From Spironucleus salmonicida (taxonomy: Eukaryota; Fornicata; Diplomonadida; Hexamitidae): a DNA stretch of 64,000 nucleotides. The translations under genes and the position numbers were made by a program. The stretch lies in contig CM035317.1 in NCBI GenBank assembly GCA_000497125.2, positions 1,784,001 through 1,848,000 of the forward strand, given 5' to 3'. The notes under the pieces are model-generated. The model had not been told where the DNA came from, did not search any database, and saw only the letters and a program-made list of their open reading frames with translations. How positions within the stretch are numbered: position 1 is the first letter of the stretch; every line of letters starts with the position of its first letter. Shown one piece after another: positions 32,421-53,177 of the stretch.

Positions 32421-35108
32421 ATGTCTTTTGACATTAATAAAAAACTAAGTGAAATGTTCTAAGCATATAGAGACTAAAATCCATCAAATGCTTCCAATTT
32501 ACTACAAGAATTCACTTCTCATTTTATCATAGCATCTTAGCTAGAAATTTTAGAAGTTTTTTCTTAAGAATCTTTAAGTTTAATATTTAATTTTTTAGGT
32601 GAATCTCCATCATTCATTGCGTTAAATTTATTGTCATTTATTTAACTATTTACTGAGCATATGAATTCATTATCAATTTTTATTAATGAAAATTTTGAGA
32701 TATACATTTAAGGAGTATAATTCATTGAAACTTAGGAGCTTCTATAATTTTATTAATTTTCTATTTCTCACCTTAATCCAAACAAGAAAACATTAGAATC
32801 TATAATTTAGAAAATGTTTGATTTGACATTATTAGCAAATAGTTAGTCATTTTCAAAATAATTAGGTGATTTAATAGGTTCTATTTTAATATTGGTTGCT
32901 AGAACAGATAGTATTATTATATTTTTAGAACGATTCATTGTATTTTTTTAAAAATGGACTATAAATTATTTGTTCGGATTTTCAGAGTTAGTGCCTAGGG
33001 TGTTACGAGTATGCATTAGTAATGATAGTCTTATGATTATGTAAGTTCAAAACTTGGTTATTTAATAATTTTAATAGATTTTAAGCTATTGCTCTGATCC
33101 CATTTGCTCTAGTTATGAAAATTATAAGATTCATTATTACCTACATAATTTATTAGAGTATTCTTATATTGATTAAAATATTTCATTTTTTAACTAATTA
33201 GATGAGATTAATTTCTTCTACTCTATTTTTAAAAAGGCGTAAACATCCGATTCTCATTCAATTTCATTTTCTCGTAATATGGGACATTTTTACATTTAAA
33301 TAAAATAAAGGTTACCTTTCACTTAATCTTTGTTAGATGATGGATCTAATTAAGCCAGATAAATAATGTTTTCATAATAAGCTATTAGTGTGATCTCTAA
33401 AGTTTAAAAAAGAACTGCAGAAAAAGATTTCTTAACATATGCTTAATATAATGGATTAATCCCAATTAAGTTGCGTACTCCTTATATTTCATTGATTATT
33501 AGTCTATTAAAAGAGTTTTACGTAGACTTATTATCATAAAAGTGGCGATATGGTGAATTATTCTAGAAAACACAAGGTAATCGGAAATTAAAAATATTTT
33601 CAGTAGATTAACTTTTATATGAATCTGTAGAAGAATTTTTAAGATTTTTTCTAATTCCTTCCAAGGCAGCTGTTAAAATGTTTAAATCATAGTAATTTTT
33701 GCATGAATAATTTTAATCTGATTATTTTACTACTATAGTTTCGCAGAATATGTATGATAATGAGATGTCAGACTTATTTATAGAGGATGCATGGACTGGT
33801 GTTCAAGAAATTGGTGTTCGCCCTCTACACTAGATGAAAAAAAAGCGACGTAAATCATAAGTCGATCTAGAGGGTATTGGGTTAAGATCTTAAAGACTTG
33901 ATGGTGAGATATAGTTACCTATATAATAGTTTAATTTTGATATTGCATAGCTACCGAAAGGATAGATGCTTCAAAAGTTTGGTAAAACCTCAAAAGGTAC
34001 AAAAGCTATAAAGCTATCAGTTAATATAGATAAAAATACTACAGAAATAAATAAATTACGAAAGTAATCTGATCTTAGGAATCAAAACAAACTATCCCTT
34101 AAAATAGGTTTATCTTTACAAAAATCTGTTTTATCATCTGAAGAATCTTCTATTTTATCTGCCCCAAAATAAATTAAATAATTAAACAAAAAATTATATT
34201 TAAAAATTAATAATACAAACAGTATATCAGATAATTATAATGTAGAATAATCATCTGATTCTGATAATTCGTAAATAGAATATTAGGGAATAAAAAATCA
34301 ATAATTGTCAAAATTTTCTTCAAATAGTTCCTTATTAGATGATTTAAATTGGTCATAAAATATGGATTTTAATTATAAGTTGACAAATAAATTGTCACTA
34401 AATATTAACAGCAATAATTGCTAATAATTATTATCATAATCTTCGTAAGGCCATATTAATTGTATTTATGAAAATAGAGTTTTATATAAAAATAGTAAAC
34501 CTTAATGTGTTATAAATCAAGAATAATCGGAATCTGCCGATATACCAATATAAATATCACAGAAAATAGAAAAATAATCTTCTTTTATTGAGGATGCTAC
34601 CAAAGAAAATTTTGATTAGTTTAGTTTATCGAATGATGATATTTCCAACGCAATCATTGCCTCTTCTGACGATTTTAGCTTAGATATTGATTTTTAAAAT
34701 CTCTATTAATAAACTGAACCAAATTTAAATATATAATCAGATTTTAATTTTGTAAAGCCTAATATTGATATATCGTAAGTAAATGATATAATTGATTGTG
34801 ATACTGATACTTCTCTTAAAAATGTATCAAGTTTATCACTTAATATGTCTAGTTAAGCTATGCCGGGCAGTAATCAGTAATTGTCATCAAGATTATTAAA
34901 TAAAAATTCTAGCTCTTCATCAGATCTTGACGACGATAACAGACTATCTCTTAATATTAAACAATCAAAAAATATAAATAGCACATAAAAGCTCGACATA
35001 TTTTAGATAAAATAGGAGAATGCGGAGACAATTAAAAGTTCTTCATCTAGTAATAAGAGACTAAAATATAAAGATGATGATTTTTAATTAAATGGCTCTG
35101 ACTCGTGA
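32421..35108 (+). CDS. Large protein with helical N-half and disordered Ser-rich C-half
   Basis: 895 aa. Residues 1-430 form a helical, hydrophobic repeat-like region (FIALNLLSFIQLF, SKQLGDLIGSILILV) resembling an ARM/HEAT scaffold. A basic patch (MKKKRRKSQ) near residue 470 could be a nuclear localisation signal. The remaining 400 residues are dominated by Ser, Asn, Asp, Gln and Leu, with repeated KLSLNI/RLSLNI-type blocks (KLSLKIGLSL, KLSLNINSN, RLSLNIKQS) and many possible phosphorylation sites. I do not recognise the family. The layout suggests a regulatory or chromatin-related scaffold, with the LSL(N/K)I blocks as docking motifs; this is inference. It ends 13 bp from the convergent gene. 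Confidence 0.75.
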
Positions 35109-35121
35109 GTAATTATTTTGA

Positions 35122-38100
35122 TCATTCAATAAATTCTAACATGTCATTTACGTTAACAGTCCCAGCATTAAGAAGACCATCTGCTTAATTATCATCTTCG
35201 AATTTACTATATTCTGCTTCATCATTTTCAGATTCTTACTTATTCATTTCTAATAACTCCTCTCCTAAAAATTTTAATTATTCATCTGGTTAAATAATTC
35301 CAGCATTAACGCCCAACATCAAAGTTGCCATGGCCTTGCTTAGTCTATCTATTAGTTTTATCTAATCAAAATACTAGTTTGCAATCGATAGTTGTCGATA
35401 CCAATTCATTTACTATTCTTCTTTCTTCTATTACTCTTCTTCAAAAGTGTTAGCTTTTTATTGTTCATTAATTTCATTTTAATCTTTCAATTTTTACTCT
35501 GCCTCCTTTTCTTTTTATTCCTTCAATTCATCTTCTTTAATACGTTTAGCTGCAGCAGGAGTAATTGGTTTTGACGTCTTGGGTGATGATTTAACAGATT
35601 TTTATGTCTTTGGCGAGCTTATAACAGATTAATTAGAGAGTTTTTCCAAAGGATTAAGAACTTCAATAATATCTCTATGAGTTTATTAAACAGGCAATTA
35701 TAAGTCTCCAAATGAGTTATTTTCTATTTAAAGTTCACTAAGCAAACCAGCTTATTTAAGTGCTCCTTGCTTTACTTTAAGTTCTTTTTATTAGGCTAAT
35801 TTATCAAAATAATTATTAGCTTCATCAAATTTTTCTGGAAGCTTTTCCGCCAAAGAAAAAATAATAGAGTATAATTGTTTAGTAACTTCATTTTATTTAC
35901 GTATTACTGGCTAGTATTTTTTATTATCTTCTGGTTTATTGTAAATAATTTCGTTAATAACAGGATATTCATTAATCACGGATAATTAGTATTCTTTGAA
36001 GACACCTTAATTTAGTAATTCTTATTAGAAACCTACTAACCCATATATATCAAATAATTGATCTAAAAATGCAACTTTATTTGTAAATTGAGATTCCCCA
36101 ACTAAAAGTTATGCCGTACCAAACGTTTTTAAAAGTTTATATACCAGAGATTTGTTAAATAAATTTATTTCTTTTATAGAAGCATCTTTAGCTACCTCAA
36201 TTTAACTTATAACTGGTTTGGTATCTTTAGGTTTGCTACCTTTACCATCAGAAGAAATTGCTCTTCTCTATTCCAAATTTATAAGATTCTAATTATATTT
36301 CAATAAATAAGCACCCTCTAAAATTTTTATAGGTACAAACAATGATGATATATCTATAACCATAGGCTTTCTAGGAATAATGGCCTAACACTAATTAGAA
36401 AAAGAGGGACTTAAATCAAATTCATACACATCTTGAGTGATAATTAGAGAATCTAATATTACAAAATGTTATCTTAATTAATCTGCCAATATTTTATAGT
36501 AATTAAATGTATGTTACCTAGAAATTAAAAGTGAAACTTTGTCATTCTTAAGGATTTCTAATAATATTGGATTGATAATAAGTTTTTACTACAATTTAAC
36601 TTATACATAGTCCGAATTTAATGAATAATGTATGACTTAAGATCTTGGCATCATACAAGATGGTGTTGTACGAGACTAAGGTCTATCTCCTAGTAAAGGG
36701 TTATATTAAGATAATTGAATAAACCCTTTTTCTGCTGCAGGTAATTTCTTTATATCATTAAATTAGATATAATCAGATTCCATAAATCTTTATATAATTT
36801 ATTCAAAACTGTTATGTTGTAATAAGTCAAGAGCTACTAGAGTAGAATCATTTACATCAAAATGGGCATAAATAAATGAATTTCCCCTACCGATAAATTA
36901 TAACTATAAGCTTATAGCAAATGTTATTAGCCAAGAGTCTTCCTCGCTATTAAGAAGTCTTAAATAATCATTATAACCATCTTTGCTGTCATTAGGGACC
37001 TTTTTACTTAATATTACTCTACATACATAAGCTATAATATCAGATTTTTTAATAATAACTTCTTGCTTTGCGCCTTTTTTTGCGCTTTCCAGACGATCTG
37101 GTGCTTTTTCTATTCCTAAAAAACCTTCCCAAAATTCAGTATTCTTACAGTTTTCTCCTAATAAGAAAATCCATTCAACTGCATACGCAGGAGATAAACA
37201 AATATATTATTGCAACTATTTAAATGAAAAAATCTTTGACTCAAGTTAATTCAATGATTCATTGCCTAATAAAAATATATCTTTGAATTCTATAATTTTA
37301 AATGAAAACAAAGAAACTAAAGGCTTTATATCTTATGAAATTAATGGTGCATCTGAAACAGCTTGTTCTAAAAGAACTTTTTGTACTGCTTAAACAATTG
37401 GATCTTGAGACTACTCATAAGTGAGAAAGGCTTAAAATGATTTTACAGTAAAATCATCTTTTATTGGATTTTTTAATTAGACTTAGTATGCTAATGCATT
37501 AATTGTAGACTACGATAAAATATCTTTAATTGAAAAATTATTCAAGTTGATACCATTATGTTTAGGTATATTACACTACTCAATAATATCTATTAGTTTT
37601 TTATTAATTATAAAATCTTAATATGAAATTCGTAATGGTACTATTTTTTGGCTACTAAAAACTTCAATAGGTACCAAAAGCTCTTACTGTTAGTTTTTTT
37701 TATCTTTCCTTTCTGGTTAAGAAGCTGTAATAGGCTTCTCTATTTTATCAAAATTTATATCACCAAATAGACCAATTTAAAGGCAAGTCATTAATTCGTT
37801 TATTGATAGATTTTAATCTAATACTAGCATAGTATTAACTGGTAAAGAATAAGAATACATTGCAATTCGTTAAGAAGAAGTAAATGGTAAGAAAGAATTC
37901 ATATCTATGAAATGAGGAAATAGTTTAAAATATTAAACAAATTCACATAAATCTTTAAAAGGATTAAACTATTATGCATATGAATCATATATAATACCGT
38001 GATAAATGACGGCACCCGTAATTTAACGTTCATTTAATGATTTTCTGGCTAAAATATTTTAAAATTTATCAACTAACATTTTTTACATTTTAAATTAAGG

Positions 38101-38484
38101 CAGAGTAGTATATTAAGAATCAATGTTCAATATAAATGATGAGTCTTTCTACGCAAAAATTTACCATTCAGAAATTAATTGCATATATACAGAACGACAT
38201 GATTATTAAATTAATTCTATTATTTTTAGAGATTATTTAATATCATAATCTGATAGAATAAAAATATCTGTGGATTATAATACTTCAATAAAAACATCCG
38301 AATATATATCATCCTATGATAAAATATTTATTCTATTTGGTAATTCTACTTTCGTCTTGTTGATATTTATTTACGAATAATTATATAATGTTCCATATAT
38401 ATTAAATTTATCGTTAACTGCAAAAACTTTGATAATTTATTATAAGGCTGGTGTATCAATATGCTGAATAAATATATTTTTCAT
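35122..38484 (-). CDS. Large unrecognised protein, 1,120 aa
   Basis: Starts at 38,484 (MKNIFIQHIDTPAL). The N-terminal 850 residues are mixed alpha/beta without low-complexity tracts. The section with TGAVIYHGIIYDSYAQ and VIKKSDIIAYVCRVILSKKVP looks folded. A segment near residue 940 (SSPKTQKSVKSSPKTSKPITPAAA) is a basic Ser-Pro-Lys linker, followed by a short Glu/Lys/Gln coiled coil and a conserved-looking C-terminal domain (QADGLLNAGTVNVNDMLEFIE). SPK/TPA linkers with a coiled coil are common in flagellar or microtubule proteins, but no known protein is identified. The gene's 5' end lies 158 bp from the left arm of the inverted repeat. Confidence 0.75.
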
Positions 38485-38703
38485 TTTGCGGAAAGAAATT
38501 ATACATTCAAAAATAAGTATAATATTTAGATACATTTTAAAATTATTTTAACAGTATTCTAAAGTTTTATTGATTTTCATAAAATATTGGTTAACTTGTA
38601 CATATTTATTCTAAACATTCGAATATAGTTTAAATAAATAGCTTTAGGAGCCCACTCCTTAAAGGTCGGGTTTCCCGGGGATCTACGAGTTAAAGTTCTG
38701 CAA

Positions 38704-40173
38704 ATGGTATCAAAAATAAAAGTATCCGACCCACCTAAAATAGGCAATTCACTTTCGGATTAGGAAGCTAATAAGACTGGTAAGTCACCATTTTAAGAAG
38801 ATTTACTGATGTAGATTGAGCATCTTAAGGATTTGTTATAATGGTCGTTCGAAAAAATATTTGAAAATAATAAAAATATAACAAATAGTTCATCCTTTCC
38901 GTATCCTGTAAAAGTAGCTATTTCACTAACTCATCCAGAGGTTTTGAACTTGAATATAAAAGACCTGTTGCATAATTACTTTTCTGTATCCGATTTATAA
39001 TTTATTCGATTGGAATCTATATGTTAGAATAAAACTATTTTTATATCTGTAGGACATAATTCTGTTAAAATTATAAATAATGATTATTATGCTACGTCAA
39101 ACTAAAAAGAAGGAATTAGAATTCTACCAATCGGCAGCAAAGATATTACATAATTTATTTAGTAAAATTTACAGGCAAAATACTAATTTTTTAGTTCTAA
39201 TATAACTTTTGACTTTGCTGAATTTGTTAAATAATCTTGCTGTAATTATTCTTATTATTATTAAGATGAGTCAGATATGTCGATTTAATAAAAATACGAA
39301 TATGACTATGTATAATATGTACAGAAGTTACAAAATATTAAAGTTCCACATTTCAAGCTAGATAATATTAACGAAAGAGCAATGTCTTCTAATTTTATAG
39401 GTGATGCCTATGTTAATACAGTTAGTAAGTATGCATTTATTGAAACCAGTTTACAATTTAAACAATTATTCAATCAATAACAAATAATAGAACTAAATGA
39501 ATTTGGGAAACGTGCAAGGTCTACGACAATATAGAAATTAATTAATCTGGCAAAGGTATAAAATCCAGAATCGCTAGCTTCATTAGAGTTAGAAGAATAG
39601 TTAAAGAGTATAAAAATCAGTGCAGATAATTAGCTTTAAATCCTATCTAGTGAAATTAAATAGTTCGAACGCAAAAAATAAATTTAATCTATGTTTGAAA
39701 GTGCATTAGAAAAGGTTGATTTTGGAGATACTTATATAGATATTTAAAAACTATAAAATCATCTTTATGCATAATATAATGAATTAAATTAATGTTCTGC
39801 GACGTGCAGTTTATAGCTAAATGATCTTGGTGTTGGAGAAACTACTATGGTTTAATTTCCACCTATTTATTATTTTAATTCAGGAGCAGCAAGTATTAAT
39901 GGCAATGTAATAATTCCTATAGTTGGAGAGTAAATAGTAGCACAAGAGTCGTATTTCAATCCATAGCTGATAAACCTAAACTGTGTAGGTGTAATTGAAG
40001 GAATTAGAGCATGTTTACCTGGATATTAGTCGTTTTCTATTGCACTTGTAGGCGCAAGTTTCCCAGGAATGGCTTAACGAATTTTTGAAGATTGTAGTAA
40101 ATTTGGTTGCATTGAAGTTTAGGCAGTAGATGAATATGATACATTAAGCAAATTTATTTTAAACTTTCAGTGA
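38704..40173 (+). CDS. Actin-related protein, left copy lacking its natural start
   Basis: From Met at 38,704, 489 aa identical to residues 54-542 of the right copy (43,892-45,520). The right copy begins with an actin-type phosphate-1 loop (LGAHSLKVGFPGD). Here the repeat begins inside the codon just before that loop, so the loop DNA is present but the native first 33 codons are missing. The frame is open further upstream, with no TGA back to an ATG at 38,461, which would give a chimeric 570-aa protein with foreign N-terminal residues, but that ATG lies inside the opposite-strand gene. Without the loop, nucleotide binding would be impaired. Whether it is expressed is unknown. Later actin-fold features (FISVGHNSVKI, RILPIGSKDITQFI, ALVGASFPGM) are intact. 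Confidence 0.7.
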
Positions 40174-40262
40174 ATTAATCGTTGACTCACTTTAGCTCTA
40201 CTATTTCTGTAAATCTGTGCACATATAAACGTAACATATGTAGTATGCAATTAAGTCGAGAT

Positions 40263-40829
40263 TCATAACATTTTCTTAAAATAAATAATTCTAGCATCAA
40301 TTTCTGATAATAATTATTACAATATATTAAAATGTTGTTAAGCAAATATTTTTCTCCCAATTTAAACATATTTATTAATAAAAAACACCTCACAATCAAT
40401 TACATGATTAGATAAGTTAAGTGTTTCAAATATATCTAAAGCCAAATGCAGATGTTTCTCCCAATTTTAAACATCTAATAATGCTAAATCGTAGTATATT
40501 CTAGCCTTATCTTCTGTCTAAGCTAATTTTGAAGCAATTTTTAATAACATAATATCCTTTAGTTATAATCCCTTAAGATGAAAATAAATTGCCTATTATT
40601 CAGGTAGAAAGTGTGCAAGATCTTATTTATTAATTAATGAAAATTAATTCTTAGCTATTGCTAAATTTAGTTTAGAAATTATAGAATATTGTGCAGCATC
40701 ATGTAATATTCTTTAACATTAGTGTGGCTTTTAATTTAAACAAAGTATCGCAAGTTTATTCATGGCGTCTACTTATTACGTTTTGTTAAACTAATTTGAA
40801 AAAATGATAATATTTAAAGCTGCCTCCAT
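40263..40829 (-). CDS. 188-aa helical protein, left copy
   Basis: Identical to the gene at 43,236-43,802. It starts MEAALNIIIFSNQF. All-helical appearance with Ala/Leu/Gln-rich pairs (LAIAKNQF, IYYDLALLDVQNWEKHL, LALDIFETLNLSN) that resemble TPR-type helical hairpins, though no repeat fits the TPR consensus closely. It converges on the actin-related gene (89 bp between stops) and lies 41 bp downstream of the Gln/Asn-rich gene on the same strand. Function unknown. Confidence 0.6.
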
Positions 40830-40870
40830 TCTTTTTTATATCTTAAATATATAATATCAAATAAAAATAG

Positions 40871-41983
40871 TCATTAGCTAGACATAACAAGTTTCTTCAA
40901 TTTAGAATTATAATGAATAAACTTTAAATTACGACTGGTGGCTTATAATTCAAATAGAGTAGTATTGGTATCGTTTTCTACGTATATTCCATATAGTACA
41001 ACAATAAACGCTTTGCTAGCCAATTTTGGAGGTAAAATAAAATCGCCAAATGAAATTTTGATTGAGTCAGGCATGATATCAGAGATATCTACCTTCTATG
41101 AAAAAGAAATCTATCCAAACTCATTAGAGATCTATAAATCAGAAACTAATACTGGATTTAATTATATCTCTTCATAAGATGGAGAGATTTGATAATAGTT
41201 ATATAGCTCCTTAAAAGTTTCTAGCATTTTATACGATTGCGACTTCTAGAATAATGATTACTTAACATCTTGATAAAACTAACTCCTATTCAATTTTTAT
41301 GTATCACTTGTAGAAATTGGTTACTCCAAAATATTCTACTTTAATACAGATTAAATATCACTGGTTAATTAGTAGCCATTGGTCGGCTATAGCTATGAAA
41401 CCGGCGCAGGTAATGTAATTTATGGTTATGACATATGAGATTAAATTTGCTATTATTTGACTGAGTCTAATTTTTCCTATGAAGATGATTTAATATCCAA
41501 TTATAAGATAGTAGCTTCACCGTTCCATTTTTAATTCTAAGTTTACTGATTTACGTGGCCACCGAAAAATTAAAGTTTTTAGTCTAAATTTAAAGAATCA
41601 TAAAATTTTTAATGGTAGGATGGTAGAACAGGTCTACTAATTTTGGTCAAAATAATATTGTTTTAACTATGAATAGGCTAGTTATGTATCGACTAATTTT
41701 AAATGCTCATAATTTAATTTGGTTAAATATTTTACTATTAATATTAGATACCTGGCTAGATAACTAGCTATTAATTTTAATATTACTACTTTAACGTAGG
41801 GGATGATATATCCATACATACCTTTTTATCACCATATTACGGTGTATTTGGCGTATCGACTCTTGCTCTTAACAAATCATTAGTAGGTGTATTGGAATGT
41901 GGACTATTAATAGCAGCAGGTGTAAATAAAACATTTTACTTAGTTGAAATACGAGGAGTATTAAGATTAGGATAATTGGACAT
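40871..41983 (-). CDS. Gln/Asn-rich protein, left copy with its own N-terminus
   Basis: 370 aa. Residues 1-41 (MSNYPNLNTPRISTKQ...) lie in the unique spacer and are rich in Asn-Thr-Pro (NTP) steps. Residues 42-370, from VDTPNTPQYGDKK onward, lie in the repeat arm and equal the right copy. After the junction comes a Gln/Asn-rich, probably disordered stretch (QQQYQNQQ, QNQSIHNQ), then a folded C-terminal region of about 130 residues (YKMLETFKELYNYYQ; DSIKISFGDFILPPKLASKAFIVVLYG). No family is recognised. The NTP motif runs smoothly through the junction (SPHSNTPTN... VDTPNTPQ), which hints that this N-terminus may be the original one. Confidence 0.65.
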
Positions 41984-42204
41984 TTTAAAATGTACTAATT
42001 TAATATAAAATAATATATATAAGTCATAAAAAAATGATCCCTGGAAAGATGATCGATATTCATGCTTCTTTACAATCTTATAATTTTAATAATGGTAAAG
42101 ATATTAATTCAGTAAAATATAATGCTATTAATCTTAGTAATAATATAAACTTATCTACATTACATTCAGTAAATTAATAATAAAGTAATTTATAAAAAAT
42201 CAGT
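41861..42204. other. Unique spacer between the inverted-repeat arms
   Basis: 344 bp, not repeated. It codes for the two different N-termini of the Gln/Asn-rich gene copies, on opposite strands, separated by a 50-bp gap (41,984-42,033). Confidence 0.85.
41984..42033. promoter_or_regulatory. 50-bp bidirectional promoter gap
   Basis: The start codons of the two divergent Gln/Asn-rich gene copies are only 50 bp apart. The gap is A/T-rich (TAATATAAAATAATATATATAAG) and must contain both promoters and both leaders, unless transcription starts inside the opposite gene. Inferred from position. Confidence 0.5.
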
Positions 42205-43194
42205 GTCGATACGCCAAATACACCGTAATATGGTGATAAAAAGGTATGTATGGATATATCATCCCCTACGTTAAAGTAGTAATATTAAAATTAATAGCTA
42301 GTTATCTAGCCAGGTATCTAATATTAATAGTAAAATATTTAACCAAATTAAATTATGAGCATTTAAAATTAGTCGATACATAACTAGCCTATTCATAGTT
42401 AAAACAATATTATTTTGACCAAAATTAGTAGACCTGTTCTACCATCCTACCATTAAAAATTTTATGATTCTTTAAATTTAGACTAAAAACTTTAATTTTT
42501 CGGTGGCCACGTAAATCAGTAAACTTAGAATTAAAAATGGAACGGTGAAGCTACTATCTTATAATTGGATATTAAATCATCTTCATAGGAAAAATTAGAC
42601 TCAGTCAAATAATAGCAAATTTAATCTCATATGTCATAACCATAAATTACATTACCTGCGCCGGTTTCATAGCTATAGCCGACCAATGGCTACTAATTAA
42701 CCAGTGATATTTAATCTGTATTAAAGTAGAATATTTTGGAGTAACCAATTTCTACAAGTGATACATAAAAATTGAATAGGAGTTAGTTTTATCAAGATGT
42801 TAAGTAATCATTATTCTAGAAGTCGCAATCGTATAAAATGCTAGAAACTTTTAAGGAGCTATATAACTATTATCAAATCTCTCCATCTTATGAAGAGATA
42901 TAATTAAATCCAGTATTAGTTTCTGATTTATAGATCTCTAATGAGTTTGGATAGATTTCTTTTTCATAGAAGGTAGATATCTCTGATATCATGCCTGACT
43001 CAATCAAAATTTCATTTGGCGATTTTATTTTACCTCCAAAATTGGCTAGCAAAGCGTTTATTGTTGTACTATATGGAATATACGTAGAAAACGATACCAA
43101 TACTACTCTATTTGAATTATAAGCCACCAGTCGTAATTTAAAGTTTATTCATTATAATTCTAAATTGAAGAAACTTGTTATGTCTAGCTAATGA
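42034..43194 (+). CDS. Gln/Asn-rich protein, right copy with a different N-terminus
   Basis: 386 aa. Residues 1-57 (MIPGKMIDIHASLQSYN...) are unique, Asn/Ser-rich and unlike the left copy's start. From Val58 (VDTPNTPQYG) to the end the protein equals the left copy. The change falls at a codon boundary within the repeat edge, and both reading frames run through it. The Gln-rich segment is coded mainly by TAA/TAG, so the region would look like a string of stops under the standard code. The TGA at 43,192 is followed 41 bp later by the 188-aa gene. Confidence 0.65.
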
Positions 43195-45422
43195 CTATTT
43201 TTATTTGATATTATATATTTAAGATATAAAAAAGAATGGAGGCAGCTTTAAATATTATCATTTTTTCAAATTAGTTTAACAAAACGTAATAAGTAGACGC
43301 CATGAATAAACTTGCGATACTTTGTTTAAATTAAAAGCCACACTAATGTTAAAGAATATTACATGATGCTGCACAATATTCTATAATTTCTAAACTAAAT
43401 TTAGCAATAGCTAAGAATTAATTTTCATTAATTAATAAATAAGATCTTGCACACTTTCTACCTGAATAATAGGCAATTTATTTTCATCTTAAGGGATTAT
43501 AACTAAAGGATATTATGTTATTAAAAATTGCTTCAAAATTAGCTTAGACAGAAGATAAGGCTAGAATATACTACGATTTAGCATTATTAGATGTTTAAAA
43601 TTGGGAGAAACATCTGCATTTGGCTTTAGATATATTTGAAACACTTAACTTATCTAATCATGTAATTGATTGTGAGGTGTTTTTTATTAATAAATATGTT
43701 TAAATTGGGAGAAAAATATTTGCTTAACAACATTTTAATATATTGTAATAATTATTATCAGAAATTGATGCTAGAATTATTTATTTTAAGAAAATGTTAT
43801 GAATCTCGACTTAATTGCATACTACATATGTTACGTTTATATGTGCACAGATTTACAGAAATAGTAGAGCTAAAGTGAGTCAACGATTAATTCACTGAAA
43901 GTTTAAAATAAATTTGCTTAATGTATCATATTCATCTACTGCCTAAACTTCAATGCAACCAAATTTACTACAATCTTCAAAAATTCGTTAAGCCATTCCT
44001 GGGAAACTTGCGCCTACAAGTGCAATAGAAAACGACTAATATCCAGGTAAACATGCTCTAATTCCTTCAATTACACCTACACAGTTTAGGTTTATCAGCT
44101 ATGGATTGAAATACGACTCTTGTGCTACTATTTACTCTCCAACTATAGGAATTATTACATTGCCATTAATACTTGCTGCTCCTGAATTAAAATAATAAAT
44201 AGGTGGAAATTAAACCATAGTAGTTTCTCCAACACCAAGATCATTTAGCTATAAACTGCACGTCGCAGAACATTAATTTAATTCATTATATTATGCATAA
44301 AGATGATTTTATAGTTTTTAAATATCTATATAAGTATCTCCAAAATCAACCTTTTCTAATGCACTTTCAAACATAGATTAAATTTATTTTTTGCGTTCGA
44401 ACTATTTAATTTCACTAGATAGGATTTAAAGCTAATTATCTGCACTGATTTTTATACTCTTTAACTATTCTTCTAACTCTAATGAAGCTAGCGATTCTGG
44501 ATTTTATACCTTTGCCAGATTAATTAATTTCTATATTGTCGTAGACCTTGCACGTTTCCCAAATTCATTTAGTTCTATTATTTGTTATTGATTGAATAAT
44601 TGTTTAAATTGTAAACTGGTTTCAATAAATGCATACTTACTAACTGTATTAACATAGGCATCACCTATAAAATTAGAAGACATTGCTCTTTCGTTAATAT
44701 TATCTAGCTTGAAATGTGGAACTTTAATATTTTGTAACTTCTGTACATATTATACATAGTCATATTCGTATTTTTATTAAATCGACATATCTGACTCATC
44801 TTAATAATAATAAGAATAATTACAGCAAGATTATTTAACAAATTCAGCAAAGTCAAAAGTTATATTAGAACTAAAAAATTAGTATTTTGCCTGTAAATTT
44901 TACTAAATAAATTATGTAATATCTTTGCTGCCGATTGGTAGAATTCTAATTCCTTCTTTTTAGTTTGACGTAGCATAATAATCATTATTTATAATTTTAA
45001 CAGAATTATGTCCTACAGATATAAAAATAGTTTTATTCTAACATATAGATTCCAATCGAATAAATTATAAATCGGATACAGAAAAGTAATTATGCAACAG
45101 GTCTTTTATATTCAAGTTCAAAACCTCTGGATGAGTTAGTGAAATAGCTACTTTTACAGGATACGGAAAGGATGAACTATTTGTTATATTTTTATTATTT
45201 TCAAATATTTTTTCGAACGACCATTATAACAAATCCTTAAGATGCTCAATCTACATCAGTAAATCTTCTTAAAATGGTGACTTACCAGTCTTATTAGCTT
45301 CCTAATCCGAAAGTGAATTGCCTATTTTAGGTGGGTCGGATACTTTTATTTTTGATACCATTTGCAGAACTTTAACTCGTAGATCCCCGGGAAACCCGAC
45401 CTTTAAGGAGTGGGCTCCTAAA
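42205..45422. repeat. Right arm of 3.2-kb inverted repeat
   Basis: Inverse copy of 38,643-41,860, 3,218 bp. This arm is joined at its outer end to the intact 5' part of the actin-related gene, so it is the better candidate for the ancestral location at that end. The apparent identity of the arms points to a very recent duplication, ongoing gene conversion, or an assembly effect. Confidence 0.9.
43236..43802 (+). CDS. 188-aa helical protein, right copy
   Basis: Identical to the left copy at 40,263-40,829. It ends TGA at 43,800. Its helical hairpin-like pattern and small number of charged low-complexity tracts suggest a folded adaptor or repeat protein. In this arm it is 41 bp downstream of the Gln/Asn-rich gene and converges on the complete actin-related gene (89 bp apart). 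No domain is recognised. Confidence 0.6.
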
Positions 45423-45520
45423 ACTATTATTAACGGTGTATTAAACTAAGGTAAGGGTCTATCTAGATTAAGTTATTCTCTAAAAGGAATATATGCATTG
45501 GGATTCAGAAGTACTGTCAT
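43892..45520 (-). CDS. Actin-related protein, complete right copy
   Basis: 542 aa from Met at 45,520 (MTVLLNPNAYIPF). Strand 1 and the phosphate-1 loop (PLIIVLGAHSLKVGFPGD, residues 29-46) match the actin pattern 'D.Gs...KaGFaGD'. The phosphate-2 region is FISVGHNSVKI, followed by GIRILPIGSKDITQFI, the typical 'p.gG.dlT..l'. Near the C-terminus, GVIEGIRACLPGYQSFSIALVGASFPGM matches the adenosine-binding actin segment with its GG.t.. turn changed to VGAS. The Asp of the first loop is Leu/Gly here, and an insertion of about 130 helical residues (315-420) interrupts the fold. This resembles nuclear ARPs of the Arp5/Arp8 group, which serve in INO80-type remodellers and tolerate loss of ATPase residues. 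Subfamily is uncertain. The outer repeat boundary at 45,422 falls in codon 33. Confidence 0.65.
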
Positions 45521-45560: not shown

Positions 45561-48500
45561 TCAATCTAATTAAACCCCTTTCCATCTTGCAATTCGCATC
45601 TACATATTTTCACCATTCATCATAAAATCACCCTATTATTATAACTAATTGAAGTTATCATTATATTAAATTGATACTAAATCAATTTATGATACTATTT
45701 CATATTTAACAGATTCAATTATAAAATCAATATAATATAACCCTCCTATTTAAATATCATGTAGTTATTATATGTTTTGACAAGATTAACAAGCACAAAT
45801 TTTAGCAACTATTGACATTAAATCAGAATTTAGAAGAGTTATTGGCAATTCTATAATATAGTTTTCATTATTAATAATTTTTTTACAAGAAAGTGCAACT
45901 ACTAAACAAAAATCAGACAATGAATTAAGATTAACATAAATTGCATTCTTAAGTAAATTTTTAGTTTATTAGGCAAGGGAAGAATACTATTTACTAATGA
46001 AGAGGAGCAAAACGTAAATAGAAAATGTAGTTAAATCTTCAGAACTGAAATTAATATTTTAGTTAAAATAATTACTTAAATTCATAAATACTTAGTTTGC
46101 ATAAATTTATTTATTAATACTTCTAGTATATTCTATAAATGAAAGTTGATTGACCTATAACAAATTAAAAGTATGATTATTTTTTATTTTTGAAGCTATA
46201 TCAAAGCATAATTAGCGAGATAGTAAAATAAAGTCTAATTCGCTATCTTATTCATTGTTAGTAATATATATCTCTGAGATTACTACATAATGAATGCAAA
46301 ATAATGTAAATTGGGATGTTTAGCCAGACTATATTGATTTTTCTACTAGTGACTAAGATAAATTCAAGGCTAAAAGCGGGTTATTAACAAATATAAAAAG
46401 GGAAATAAGCTTAAATATTAAGTATTACAAAGAATATTCTATAGACGAAATCGGAAATAAAAGTTACTGTTTTAACATATCTAAATAATTTTATTGAGTA
46501 AAAATACTTTAAATAAGCATAGTATTGCGTATAGATAAATCATTAAGTGAATTTTTAACAGTAGATTTTTTGTTATAATTCACTTCTTGCAGAATATTTA
46601 TAGCTAATTAACAAGCTATTTAGTGATTTTATGAATGAGTCAATTAGTCAAATAGTGTATTTATTAGATGAAGTCTAATACTTAGTGGTTAAATCTCATT
46701 AAATTTTATAGTATTGAGCAAATAATAATTATTATAACGCTGTAAAATGATATTAAAGTATTAAGTTTGTGAATTATACGTTTATATAAGTTCATATGTT
46801 CTTATTGATTCATAAATTTAATAAAATGTACTTTACTAAGATGATTTTTATACAATATCAATAAGAATATCAAATTTAATTATATTAAATCCTTAGATTC
46901 CATTAATATCAACATAATTTGTAATATTTTATTATTTTAGGAAGTGATTTATTTCCCTAAGTTTACTAAAGCTTTCATTTACTTAGTTTGTATAAATATA
47001 CGGTATTTAACCTAAAAATAATGCTTATTTGACGCAATATTAATTTAATTTCATTATTTCAATTTAATCATAGATATCAGTAAAAATTTAAGAGCATGAA
47101 TTTAAACATTACGTTAATAGATCAATTGGAAAATAAATTCCATCAAAGTAATAAATAATATTTTATTTTGGAATATTTTAGACTGCTTGTTATATAGAAC
47201 GATTCTTTTTTGTCACTAATTCCTGCAAAAGCTTAGAATCTGTTTATCTAAAAGCTAACTGCAATATTGATGCATTTGTAGCGATTTTTTAACTAGAAAA
47301 ATTAAATACCATTTACAAATCTTCCAATATTCCTGCTTCATAACTTTAAAATGAATCAGATTAAATGGATTAGATAAAGCAAAAGTTTAAAAGAGATTTT
47401 CTATCCTCTAATAACGATATTTATTGGTAATATTTATTAATCATATATTTACTACATTTATAAAGTTCAAGACTGTATTATTAAATGAAATTTTCTTTGA
47501 ATATGCTACGCATTAAAGAATTTTACCAAGTGTAAATAGTTTCCAGACAACTATATGTATTGCTTTGAACAAATTATCCTTTCAGTCCATAATTTGCATT
47601 TTTAAGGGAACAATTTGGCAATGATGGATTAATAAGATGTGTGATTGTACAAATATTAGTACATGATGCCATAGATTCTTCATTTTATATTTCTAATAGT
47701 CGTGATAAATGCTATGAATTAAAGCTAGGATCTAATAGTGTTGATGTTGCTAAAACAGATATATCTCTTTTAGTGATTAAATGATCTTTTGATACTAGTT
47801 TAACATATTAATATGCAATATATAAATCATCCATCTCTAATAATTCCAAAGTTTTATTGATAATCATACCAGATGCTAATACAGCTGAATGTTAATATAA
47901 TTTAATTAATAATTTTTCAATGCATTTGATACTACCAAATGACTTTCTCATAAGAGTAAGTGCTAAATCTGGCTAGTCTATATTAAATACTTGTTTAAGA
48001 TAATCTTAAACCTAATCATTATTCATATAGTTAATAGCTAAAAATGCAACCTTGATACCTCTATTCTATGCAGCAGCATATGCAAAACATTTTGTTCTAA
48101 TTTCCTATTGATCAATAGAACTACTAATATGAGAGGCTTCAGACTACACTTCAGACTATATTGATGCAATATCAGCGTATGACTAAGATATTTATTTTTG
48201 TTATAAAGTATACATATCCTTTTCATTAGATTGAATATATTCCGAAAATTATTAAAATTAATCCATTATTTTTTAAGTGCTATATGTTTAATCCAATTAA
48301 TTCTCTGTTTAAAGACAAAACATAGAACTATTTAACTTTAAACCTGGAACTTCTGATGTCATAATCTGCAATCTGGGAAATTTTTTTAGCAGTTCTAATA
48401 AAACTCTAATTTAGTTCATATGAATATTAGACTAAAAATCATCAAGAAGAATAATAACCATTAAAGAGCACTCTAATAATTATTTGATAAATATAAATAA

Positions 48501-49955
48501 TAGGTCCTTTATTTAATCAATTGCAACTTAAACTATTGATGGTTAACCTAGTTCTAAATATTTTGCAAATCCTGGTACTAAAGAAAAAATAATATTAATC
48601 TCTTTTTATTGCTTAAATAAAGAAATAAAAGTTTACTTTAATATTTCATTTTTTAAGTCAATAATACCTTAAGAAAAGTAAATTAGTAGAAAATGATAAA
48701 AATTTTAAACATCAATTTACTTATTCGTCCAATAATTTGATAAAAGTATTTCGCTTATCAACTCCAAGCTATCATTTTTACTAGGAATATAAAAACAAAG
48801 TGATTGTAATTTTTATGTCAATACTTATCTTACATCTAGTAGAAGCTAGGATTTACCTGAACCAAAATAGCCTTGAATAATTGTAAGCCGTCCAGTTTCA
48901 TCGGATGCATATTAATTACCATCTAATCCCATATTGACATTTAAATACTTAGAAGGAATTATTGTTGCGTCCGGTAGGATAATGCTTTTATGCTATTTAT
49001 CTGTTATTATTATCTATTATGAGTCAAATTTATTGATTTTAAGACATTCAAAGCTGAGATTCCCTGAAAAATGATCACATACCTATTTCAGTAAGCCATT
49101 ATATATTTATAACTTATGCTTATCAATTTTATTCTTAAATATATGATAATCATATATTGGTCTCGTGTTTGGTTTATCAAATAGGGTACTCCAAATTTAA
49201 TTAAAACTAGAATGGACTTACGAGACAGACATGAAATAGTCTGATGGTTAATAGTAGAGTAGTTTTACTATTTGAACTATGAGAAGTTAAGGAATATTCT
49301 TATTTTATAAAATACAGATAGTTTATAATTTTTATGTTTATAATTAGTCAAGAGTGTTAATATTAAAAGCATCTAGAGGTAGCTCACCAGTACAAATTTA
49401 ATAAAATAAGCTACCAATTTAATATATATCACATGAAATTGTGAATCTTATCTTTTAAATTACCCTTAAATCAGGAGGAAATGCTAAATATTATCTAAAT
49501 TTCAAAAAATTATCAAATTTAGGGTCATCGTATGATGAATAATTAAATTTTTAGCCTGTAAATTCTAGAGGACATAAAACTTATATGGATAAAGTCTCAA
49601 TTGGTATATAGTAACCAATAAATTAAATATTTTTGCCAATTAGTACATTTTATGTACTGATACCTCTAACAACACCTCCATTAGTATGAACTGTAGTTAC
49701 ACCTTCTAAAATAATAAAAAATATAGCAAACATCTTTTATGAATAAGGTAAAGAATATCTTGAAATAGGCTTTGAATTAATATCTACTAAACATTACACA
49801 ATTAATTTCTATGTTGATTATTCAATATAAATAGGTAAAACGGAACTAGTGATATTAGTATGAGTTTTAAGCTTCAATAAATCTAAATAATAAGAATCTA
49901 AGTGCTCTTATAACCAAGTATGCGTGTTAATATAGGTGTCAAAGGTTTACGTCAT
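45561..49955 (-). CDS. Pseudokinase-like / P-loop NTPase / helical-repeat protein, 1,464 aa
   Basis: A single frame from Met at 49,955 (MTQTFDTYINTH) to TGA at 45,561. Residues about 90-220 resemble the C-lobe of a protein kinase: HTNGGVVRGISTQNVLIG stands where 'HrgivHrDi.p.NiLi' would be, then YLAFPPDLR and SCDIYQIGSLFYQICTGELPL, like 'Y.aPE...' and 'DiysLG.ilyel.tG..Pf'. The catalytic Asp and DFG are not evident. At 361-368 is a Walker A motif, GYFGSGKS, and at about 497-505 a Walker B, VIILLDDFQ. The remaining 900 residues are helical. This order (kinase-like, STAND/AAA-16-type NTPase, helical tail) is the plan of some bacterial and protist signalling kinases. A role as a nucleotide-switched signalling scaffold is inferred. 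It ends 41 bp from the actin-related gene's start. Confidence 0.75.
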
Positions 49956-50015
49956 TTTATGAAACGTATTTAATTTATTATATATAATATTAATATAGTT
50001 TGCGTTCCAATAGTT

Positions 50016-53000
50016 ATGTATATAAGCACACTATAGCTAAAATGCTTTAAGTAGTTTCAAGATATTTTACTTTACCCACATCATGGATTAAATTTTATAA
50101 TAGGTAATAATGGTGAAGGGAAATCTAATATTCTTGAAGCTTTATAATGTCTGACAGTGTCTACAAATTAAGAAAGAAGAATTAGCCTAATTCAGAATCA
50201 TTATGGTAGTGCCAGTATTTACTATCAGTTTAATGATTTAGATATCGTAAAAAATTATTCAGATTAATTCGAAGAATTATTTCTTAATGGTACTAAAATT
50301 TCATTTCCTTAACTTTAAAGTTAACTAGAATATTATGGAATAACGAATTTATAGATTATTAAATAAAGTGATGTAACTCTCATAAAATCATTATAAGATC
50401 TTTATGCAGTAAAAAACTTTGATCAAAGATAGAAGGAAAATAGAAACCTTTTATTAAAGTCGAGCTAGAAGCATGATTAGATTAAGGAAAAATTAATCGA
50501 ATTAGACATGAAAGTTAAGACTTTATAAAATGATAAAGCTGAATTTACTATGTATCTAGATTTTTAGCATTAAAAATAACGGGCTGAAGCTACAGTAATT
50601 TATTTTGATTTAGTTATGCTAAAGGGGCGAAAGATAGAAATAGATTAATTATTTTAATAAAATCTGATTTAACACGATAATTAAATAAAAGATTAATCCA
50701 TTTATGAGAAACTAATTTAAGAAAGTGAGTAGATAATTGAAGAAACAGAGTAAAAAATAAATCAACTTTAATAGTAAATTTACTAAAATAAATAATAAAA
50801 AGATATTTTATAAGAATTATTGCTATCTTCTCCAGATTATATATTGTCTGTTAAGTCATAAACATAAAATGTTGAAGATCTAGATCACTAAATCTTGTAA
50901 ACACAATCCGAAATTTAGGATTTATAAAGTCAATTGTAGATAATAATGTAATAATACCAATCAATAGTTGTAAAATTACAATAATTTAATAATTCTGAAA
51001 GTTTAGATGAAAATAAATCTTAGATTTAGAGCAAGCTTCTTAAAGCTAAACATAAATGTTAAGAATATAGTGAATAGCGCACATAATTAGTATCTTAGTT
51101 AAATTAGTTATAAATACCAATAGAACAATAGGATTCAATCAGTGTATAATAATATGCTAGAATAAAATCACAGTTATATATAGCTGTATAAAGTTTAGAG
51201 AAATAATAAAAACTTAAGTAAAATTAAATGTTTGATAACTAAAGAGCGGTTTCAGAGCTAAATAGATAAATACCTGGTTAAGTTGCATATCCTATTTAGT
51301 ATATATAAAAGTTATTAAAGTCATAAGGAAATAAATTTGAAAATAAAATTTTTGGGCCATTGTATTAACTTTTAAGTTTTGATAAAAGTCTTATTAACGT
51401 AATAGATGCAGCTATAGGGATGTCATTATTTAATATAGTGGTGGATACAGAAGAAGCAGCACTCTAGATAATAGATTTAATGACTGTAGACTCACAAATT
51501 GATCTTGATTTAGTAAATGCGAAAGTAAACTTTTTACCTTTGTCTAATTTTAAAGTATAATAATATTTGAATCTTAGTTTACCAGATGATTCAGTATAGT
51601 TGTCCTCATTACTCTCAGTGGATGATTAATTTTAAACTTTGATCTAATGTTTGTTTGGACGAGTTATTATTTGTAAAAATTTATAACTGGCAAAAGTAGT
51701 ATAAAATACTTTAAATCTAGATTGTTTTACAATTGATGGCGACTCTTTATAGCATTCAGGGTTAGTAGTTGGTGGGTATAGAAATACGATTAGAGTAAAA
51801 TGCTGTTTTGATGTGATAAGTACTGATATATAGTTAAAATAGACTATTAAGGTAATAGTAGAATCAAAAGAAGAGCATGATAGATTAGTGTAAGAAAATC
51901 ATAGGTTATAACTAAAAGTTATTTAAGATGAAAAGTATTAGCAGAATTATATCAATGATATGACTATATATCGCAATAATATATTAGAATTGGACAGTAA
52001 AATTAATTAGCTTGAAAAGCAAATTAGTGAAGAGACTGTTTAAATAAATAGCATGGAAAATTAATTAATTATTTTAAATCAAGTTGATGTATCATAAACT
52101 TAGCAGTCTGTCGAAGAGCTTAAAAATTCTAAATAATAAAAGGATGAACTTATTTAGTAGTAAAAGCTTAAAATTTTTCAATCATAGAAATAGGAAGAAT
52201 TCCTCTTAGAGAAATAGTAATTATTAAACTAAAAGAAAAACTAAGTACAAATTTAGCTAGATGTTCAATTACAGAAAGTTAAGCGATAATTTTCTAATTT
52301 GGATATTCCTTCAGCAGCATCTCCTGAAGAAGCTATGGAAATAGCATAGCGACGAAATAACGATTTATAACAATAGATTAGAATGGATAATGAACAAATT
52401 TACTAACTTAATAAAGTGTTATAAGATCATTATTAATAACTTCAATAAGTTTAGTATAGTTTGGTATTAGCTAATAAATAAGTTAATGAGATATCATTAT
52501 TGTAACAGATTACTAAATAAGAAATTGATGACTTATTCTAATCAATTCATTTATTAGAGATGTAATTGTTGTCTTTACCACAACCTTTGGACTTCCCATC
52601 ACGAGCAGATGCAGTATGCTTTTCTTCTAAAGTTTAAAACTAGTTATTATAATTTAAGAACATTAACAAATTATCAATTGATTAGTTTACATTACTTAAA
52701 TCTAAGTTTGATTCTTCATCGGATAAATTTGCTCAGCTCACTATAAACTAAATGGAATTAAGCAAAAATGTTGAAATAGCAGATTAACGTTTTAATTCTT
52801 AGTTTGACGATACTTTAGAAAAGGTGAAAAAATATTATAAGTAATATTTAAAATTTTTATTAGACCTGACTGGTGATATTTTAACTAAAGAATAAACTAT
52901 TGAGTTAGTAATTCACTGTAAAGGATCAGCTTCAGCAGGGTAATAGGCTGCTGCTAGGGCAGCATATATTTTAGCTCTCTAAGCGAATTCACCAATTTTA

Positions 53001-53177
53001 ATTTTAGATGAAGTTGATGCACATTTAGATTAAGACACAAAACTAAAGTTTGGTCAGTTACTATAAAGTGTTAGTTAGAAATCTTAAATTTTTTGTGTTA
53101 GTTTTTGCAAAGAAATTCTATCATTTGGAGATAAAATATTTTAAGTAGCAGAGGGAAATGTAAATGAGGTGATCTGA
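50016..53177 (+). CDS. SMC3-like chromosome structure protein
   Basis: 1,053 aa. Walker A is GNNGEGKSN (about residues 33-41), preceded by LKCFKQFQDILLYPHHGLNFIIG, the standard SMC head start. LIQNHYGSASIYYQF follows, like the 'llHeGtg..v.sA.VEi.F' of SMC3, then SQLEYYGI and IKQSDVTLIKS. Two long Gln-rich coiled coils flank a hinge (about 440-590: FGPLYQLLSFDKSLINVIDAAIG, DTEEAALQII, ending GLVVGGYR as in SMC3). The C-terminal head has a degenerate ABC signature GSASAGQQAAARAAYILAL and Walker B ILILDEVDAHLD. SMC3 with SMC1 forms the cohesin ring. It is about 150 residues shorter than most SMC3, with shorter arms, and the signature Leu-Ser-Gly-Gly is SAGQQ. Start chosen at 50,016 because MYISTLQLKCF fits the family N-terminus. 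Confidence 0.82.

What the first reader, a model, noticed from the sequence alone, without database searches (positions are those of the whole stretch)
38643..45422. Palindromic 6.8-kb locus: two apparently identical 3.2-kb arms with three genes each
The window contains an inverted repeat of 3,218-bp arms around a 344-bp spacer. Base-by-base pairing at both ends gives exact boundaries, and every coding stretch I compared is identical. There is no transposase, integrase or terminal motif, so it is not an obvious mobile element. Identity over 3 kb means very recent origin, continuous gene conversion between arms (as in other large palindromes), or selection for dosage. Large palindromes are also prone to hairpin formation and copy-number change, so this may be an active site of genome rearrangement.
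Basis: seen in the sequence. Interest (0 to 1): 0.85.

Follow-up and report, generated by a model that had tools for sequence, protein, structure and literature searches.

The report
Inverted three-gene duplication in fish parasite
A 3.2-kb stretch carrying three genes lies twice, head to head and without a single difference, near one chromosome end of a fish parasite; it is most likely a recent, fairly ordinary copying accident that also fused a new front end onto one gene copy.

Summary
The host is, very probably, Spironucleus salmonicida, a diplomonad with TGA as only stop. 'Three genes each' needs correction. Only gene B is whole and alike in both arms. Gene A (weakly actin-like) is whole only on the right. 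Gene C has its likely natural start only on the left; the right copy has a different, in-frame start made of spacer DNA. So two of the four junctions look ancestral and two new, and the ancestral ones sit on different arms. Best explanation: one replication or repair event inverted a 344-bp piece and left an inverted 3.2-kb copy beside it; the implied single-copy row has ordinary spacing and needs no lost DNA. Fold-back duplication plus a later spacer flip is the main rival. A protein record that was not translated from this assembly contains the new inner junction, which argues against an artefact; the new outer junction has no independent support. Recent origin and arm-to-arm conversion cannot be told apart. 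New member of a known kind.

The parts
38643..41860 (+). left arm of the inverted repeat (3,218 bp)
   Evidence: exact reverse complement of the right arm; the 2 matches in the own assembly are the two arms
41861..42204 (+). spacer, 344 bp; holds the first 41 codons of C-left, a 50-bp gap between two divergent ATGs, and the first 57 codons of C-right
   Evidence: 1 match in the assembly
42205..45422 (-). right arm of the inverted repeat (3,218 bp)
38643..40173 (+). gene A, left copy, 5'-truncated (lacks about the first 33 residues; the frame stays open upstream to 38461 in GC-poor flank)
43892..45520 (-). gene A, right copy, complete, 542 aa; weakly similar to actin-related protein 2
40263..40829 (-). 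gene B, left copy, complete, 188 aa
43236..43802 (+). gene B, right copy, complete, 188 aa, no Pfam family above cut-off
40871..41983 (-). gene C, left copy, 370 aa, likely natural N-terminus in the spacer (four [ST]P motifs continuing the run in the arm)
42034..43194 (+). gene C, right copy, 386 aa, first 57 residues from spacer DNA fused in frame to C; same N-terminus as UniRef V6LXQ9
38642..38643 (.). junction left flank/left arm, inferred new; supported by this assembly only
41860..41861 (.). junction left arm/spacer, inferred ancestral (inside C)
42204..42205 (.). junction spacer/right arm, inferred new; also present in protein V6LXQ9
45422..45423 (.). junction right arm/right flank, inferred ancestral (inside A)
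35122..38484 (-). left neighbour gene L (1,120 aa from the likely ATG), no Pfam family
45561..50201 (-). right neighbour gene R, 1,546 aa, weak ATPase match below Pfam's cut-off

Best explanation
A real inverted segmental duplication of a once single-copy gene row L(-) - C(+) - B(+) - A(-) - R(-). In one event (template switching during replication or break repair, or an inversion with staggered breaks) a 344-bp piece holding the first 41 codons of C plus part of the L-C intergenic DNA was inverted, and 3,218 bp of C-B-A was copied in inverted orientation on its other side. Shown: exact arms, junction positions, reading frames. Inferred: which junctions are ancestral, the ancestral order, the mechanism. 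Consequences: B doubled intact; A kept intact on the right with a 5'-truncated second copy on the left; C kept intact on the left, with a second C copy given a new in-frame 57-residue N-terminus from spacer DNA. The arms are identical because the event is young or because they convert each other; the data do not separate these.
For: Arms exact, identity ending abruptly. The C-left N-terminus continues C: 4 [ST]P in 41 aa next to 3 in the following 60, against 32 in 9,937 residues of ten other window ORFs (0 of 9,527 windows reach 4), and GC 30.9%. The C-right N-terminus has 0 [ST]P in 57 aa and 19.9% GC, as low as 56 of 563 coding windows. A-right has a complete 542-aa frame starting 40 bp from its neighbour's stop with 30.6% GC in the 98 bp outside the arm; the matching 98 bp of left flank have 18.4%, a value reached by 71 of 953 coding windows. 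Turning the spacer round and dropping the left arm gives gaps of 379, 41, 89 and 40 bp, the L-C gap being near the published mean of 421-460 bp, with nothing missing. The new inner junction is in V6LXQ9, whose last residues differ from this assembly, so it was not translated from it.
Against: No unrearranged relative or read data could be examined, so the ancestral order is inferred. The codon score does not decide: the spacer part of C-right scores 0.05 with its frame best of six (26% of 1,020 gap windows score as high, 18% of 152 coding windows as low), the C-left part scores 0.227 but one frame of its other strand scores 0.247, and the A-right N-terminus scores -0.011 with another frame at 0.092. 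Microhomology is weak: 0 bp directly at either new junction; 5 bp behind one mismatch at the outer one (0.2% of random pairs, picked after the fact) and 2 bp at the inner one. The searches for A and C each listed one protein cluster: a 454-aa A and the fused C, not both forms.
Confidence: 0.5

Rival explanations
1. Fold-back inverted duplication: a broken end folded back with a 344-nt loop and was copied for 3.2 kb, then joined to the left flank; later recombination between the arms flipped the spacer.
For: A unique spacer between inverted copies is the fold-back hallmark (all 21 sequenced human junctions, 766-70,466 bp, passages of PMC3907307; yeast large-loop hairpins median 36 nt and up to many thousands, passages of PMC7467729). 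Perfect arms could pair and flip the spacer.
Against: In a plain fold-back the arm with its natural outer flank also keeps the natural spacer junction; here these seem to sit on different arms, so a second step is needed. The spacer is shorter than any of the 21 human ones.
Confidence: 0.25
2. Older inverted duplication kept identical by continuing gene conversion between the arms.
For: Concerted evolution of inverted duplicates is described for Drosophila Attacin genes (passages of PMC7584159). Zero differences in 3,218 bp is also what conversion would give; the upper 95% bound on divergence is 0.093%, about the published allelic heterozygosity of 0.09-0.15%.
Against: No decayed similarity beyond the arm edges, as partly converted old repeats would often show. 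V6LXQ9 differs from both arms near the end of C; this could be an error or a variant.
Confidence: 0.12
3. Assembly artefact (chimeric or missed-adapter long reads, or mis-joined haplotypes).
For: False palindromes occur in long reads (after whole-genome amplification: PMC6218980, listing and start of abstract only; missed adapters: recalled). The locus ends 48,329 bp from the right end of contig C2; the paper says that the chromosome 2 optical map is incomplete at its right end (that C2 is chromosome 2 is inferred). The junction left flank/left arm has no independent support. The protein searches show only one form of C.
Against: A missed adapter gives no asymmetric 344-bp spacer and no distinct unique flanks on both sides; 40 ug of genomic DNA from culture was sent directly for sequencing. 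Left-arm/spacer is supported by the coherence of C and spacer/right-arm by V6LXQ9, so the arm sits on both sides of the spacer on two different kinds of evidence. Coverage 161x, read N50 14.6 kb, long enough to cross 6.8 kb.
Confidence: 0.1
4. A mobile element with long inverted ends, or a functional palindrome.
For: Long inverted repeats around a spacer.
Against: No Pfam match to a mobile-element protein in genes A, B, C, no other copy found in the assembly, a gene cut at an outer edge. Target-site duplications were not looked for beyond the junction comparison.
Confidence: 0.03

Closest known systems
Inversions flanked by inverted duplications (staggered-break / chromatid models, Drosophila; described in PMC7584159, passages)
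   Same: inverted copies of one stretch on both sides of an inverted segment, two ancestral and two new junctions
   Different: the inverted segment here is only 344 bp and the duplicated stretch 3.2 kb; the uninverted state has not been seen
Attacin inverted duplicates of Drosophila subobscura (PMC7584159, passages)
   Same: arms of about 1.1 kb, highly identical, 250-407-nt spacer, opposed gene copies, spacer orientation differing between chromosomes, concerted evolution
   Different: one gene per arm in a fly; here three genes, one truncated at the edge, one fused reading frame, and no population data
Fold-back inverted duplications (human PMC3907307; yeast PMC7467729, PMC10622511; passages)
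   Same: single-copy spacer between inverted copies
   Different: natural junctions seem to lie on different arms, and the copy is interstitial, not terminal
Intra-isolate inverted duplications in Giardia (PMC7048089, passages)
   Same: diplomonad; 2, 14 and 0 inverted duplications predicted in three isolates, figures in parentheses 2257.0 and 2680.1, which I take as mean sizes in bp
   Different: predicted from reads as variants; genes and junctions not described in the passages seen

Membership tests
Inversion with inverted duplication at its ends (staggered break or template switch) | same sequence in inverted orientation at both ends of a segment | tested here: met
Inversion with inverted duplication at its ends (staggered break or template switch) | the enclosed segment is inverted relative to the single-copy state, with two ancestral and two new junctions | tested here: inconclusive
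   continuity of C and A and the spacing of the implied row agree, but the single-copy state was not observed and the codon score does not decide
Inversion with inverted duplication at its ends (staggered break or template switch) | duplication absent from the uninverted chromosome | not testable with these tools
   no relative or alternative haplotype at hand; only two arm copies found in the assembly
Fold-back inverted duplication | unique spacer between the copies | tested here: met
   344 bp, 1 match in the assembly
Fold-back inverted duplication | the copy with the natural outer flank also keeps the natural spacer junction | tested here: not met
   as assembled, A is natural on the right and C, by inference, on the left; a later flip would restore it
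Fold-back inverted duplication | short inverted homology where spacer meets inverted copy | tested here: inconclusive
   0 bp next to the inner junction, 2 bp behind one mismatch; the ancestral neighbour sequence is unknown
Gene-converting large palindrome | arms more alike than their age predicts | not testable with these tools
   age unknown; 0 of 3,218 differences
Long-read palindrome artefact | symmetric centre without spacer (recalled), junction absent from other data | tested here: not met
   344-bp asymmetric spacer; inner junction present in V6LXQ9; outer left junction not checked by other data
Transposable element | transposase or integrase, or more copies | tested here: not met
   no Pfam match to a mobile-element protein in genes A, B, C; two copies only

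The most novel reading that the evidence does not exclude
The perfect arms keep recombining, so that the 344-bp spacer flips between orientations among the genome copies of this cell with two diploid nuclei. It would act as an invertible bidirectional promoter that decides which arm makes the natural C and which makes the fused C with its new N-terminus, a new gene form born from non-coding DNA.
Probability: 0.12. Interest if true: 0.65.

Novelty: new member of a known kind. Interest (0 to 1): 0.3.

Why it matters
It is a clean, base-resolved case of how a protist with two diploid nuclei doubles ordinary genes outside its multi-gene surface-protein families, and of how such an event can hand a gene copy a new start made of spacer DNA. 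If the spacer orientation varies within one culture, the locus would be a ready measure of recombination in diplomonads.

Tried and rejected
Standard-code reading: no open stretch longer than 148 codons in the window; the TGA-only code resolved the genes. Considered that the spacer holds the start of a further gene running right (so that DNA was lost): codon score indecisive (the earlier attempt had poorly chosen training and calibration sets and is not relied on), GC low; left open, but not needed by the implied row. Considered that this stretch continues into the left flank: the joined frame closes after 78 residues, uninformative. Homologue searches with A and with C-right each listed one protein cluster, no other species (clusters at 90% identity may hide further members), so no relative with the single-copy order was available; B, L and R were not searched there. 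Single-sequence structure models of A and C failed (mean pLDDT 34.3 and 31.6), so no fold search was made. That A is an actin-related protein rests on weak matches (best E 0.0033); C's resemblance to the Nup98 autopeptidase domain (Pfam E 0.15, below cut-off) is only a lead.
Full report
Observation. The inverted repeat is exactly as stated: 38643-41860 equals the reverse complement of 42205-45422 over all 3,218 bases, spacer 344 bp. It is the only inverted repeat reported for the window at a minimum of 40 bp. The arm has 2 matches in the 14,471,397-base assembly, both here, and the spacer 1. Identity stops at the edges; outside the outer edge one mismatch is followed by 5 matching bases.

Organism. 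Reading only TGA as stop opens long frames. Contigs C1-C9 sum to 14,014,076 bases (lengths, sum), CCTA repeats stand at the start of the small contig C10, and a protein of the locus is filed under Spironucleus salmonicida, UniRef V6LXQ9. This agrees with the chromosome-scale assembly of PMC9509377 (parts 1 and 2 of 3 of its text read): nine chromosomes, 42 scaffolds, 14.7 Mb with 284 kb of gaps, (TAGG)n telomeres, 161x PacBio coverage. The contig counts differ (37 here), and the genome handle carries no name, so the identification of the assembly is an inference, though a strong one. The window lies at C2:1784001-1848000 of 1,877,751; the locus ends 48,329 bp from the contig end. The paper says that the optical map of chromosome 2 is incomplete at its right end; that C2 is chromosome 2 is inferred.

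Genes. With table 6 the arms carry three genes. A-right is 542 aa and complete; A-left lacks about its first 33 residues, and the flank it runs into has 18.4% GC against 30.6% for the matching part of A-right. B is 188 aa and complete in both arms. C-left is 370 aa and C-right 386 aa; they share the residues encoded inside the arm but begin differently: 41 codons of C-left and 57 codons of C-right lie in the spacer, on opposite strands, with 50 bp between the two ATGs. Both ATGs are preceded by at least three A, a start context that PMC3916229 (section 6 and passages seen) reports for 33.0% of genes. A has weak similarity to actin-related protein 2 (5 of 7 listed chains, best E 0.0033). C has a sub-threshold match to the Nup98 autopeptidase domain. 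Protein searches of the assembly found A only in the two arms and C in the two arms plus one insignificant match (E 0.07); B was not searched as a protein.

Which junctions are ancestral. The first 41 residues of C-left hold four [ST]P motifs and the next 60 hold three; ten other window ORFs hold 32 in 9,937 residues and 0 of their 9,527 windows reach four; among TGA-free windows in all six frames of the window, this locus included, 9 of 13,524 do. The 57 residues of C-right hold none. GC is 30.9% for the C-left part and 19.9% for the C-right part. So left-arm/spacer is taken as the natural junction of C, and right-arm/right-flank as that of A. The other two are new. The codon score does not settle it: C-left part 0.227 bits per codon, but 0.247 in one frame of its other strand; C-right part 0.05, best of its six frames, within the range of both coding and gap windows; A-right part -0.011 with 0.092 in another frame; left flank in the A frame -0.164. 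If the spacer is turned round and the left arm removed, the row L-C-B-A-R has gaps of 379, 41, 89 and 40 bp, against a mean intergenic distance of 421-460 bp in the two papers, with no DNA missing.

Mechanism. Two natural junctions on different arms is the pattern of an inversion with an inverted duplication at one end, by staggered breaks or by repair synthesis; PMC7584159 discusses both readings for a Drosophila inversion (passages). A plain fold-back would put both natural junctions on one arm (reasoning from the models in PMC3907307, PMC7467729, PMC10622511; passages), so it needs a later flip of the spacer. Such flips are not far-fetched: in Drosophila subobscura, Attacin duplicates with arms of about 1.1 kb and a spacer of 250-407 nt differ in spacer orientation between chromosomes and evolve in concert. 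In Giardia 2, 14 and 0 inverted duplications were predicted within three isolates (PMC7048089, passages). An inverted duplication in a diplomonad is thus not unheard of. Searches for S. salmonicida with 'inverted repeat' (3 papers) and for Giardia with palindrome terms (35 papers at three of four terms, 20 listed) showed no description of this locus in their listings; PMC3916229 has no occurrence of 'palindrom' or 'inverted' at a word start in its main text. Neither is proof that it is not in print.

Artefact or real. V6LXQ9 starts with the 57 spacer residues of C-right and runs into the arm, 351 of 352 aligned residues identical, then differs in its last residues, so it was not translated from this assembly; most likely it comes from the 2014 assembly of the same strain, made from 454 reads (inference; the age of the accession is recalled). 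That supports the spacer/right-arm junction. The left-arm/spacer junction is supported by the coherence of C. So the arm stands on both sides of the spacer on two lines of evidence. The junction left flank/left arm rests on this assembly alone. Against a full confirmation: the protein searches listed only a 454-aa A (which the window itself encodes, so its source is not shown) and the fused C. That is what a collapsed short-read assembly would give, but also what a single-copy locus with the fused C as the natural form would give.

Age. Zero differences in 3,218 bp bound divergence at about 0.09%, about the published allelic heterozygosity (0.09-0.15%). This fits a recent event or ongoing conversion. 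[quoted passage not shown]

Verdict. A real, probably young inverted duplication of known kind; novel details are the apparent split of natural junctions between the arms and the fused reading frame.

Noticed in passing
42034-43194 against UniRef V6LXQ9 (P0002): The public protein and this assembly differ by a frame change near the end of C: the last residues of V6LXQ9 match neither arm. Sequencing error in one assembly or a variant between copies.
   Followed up: partly
L024 end (C2:1868001-1877751) and L005 start (C3:1-10000): The right end of C2 ends in, and the left end of C3 begins with, the same 8-base satellite (TATAGTAA and its complement), not the TAGG telomere repeat.
   Followed up: partly
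49860-53177 (+): SMC-family gene (SMC hinge E 1.8e-15, SMC_N E 6.3e-15), its open frame overlapping at the 5' end that of the large ATPase-like gene on the other strand.
   Followed up: no
32424-35108 (+): 894-aa protein with only a weak sub-threshold Pfam match to Transposase_28 (E 0.14, 17 residues); probably chance, but it is the one mobile-element name near the locus.
   Followed up: no
window, NheI sites 39573, 41015, 43045, 44487: Both arms carry two NheI sites each, the enzyme of the published optical map, so the map could show the duplication if it reaches this far and resolves such short fragments.
   Followed up: no
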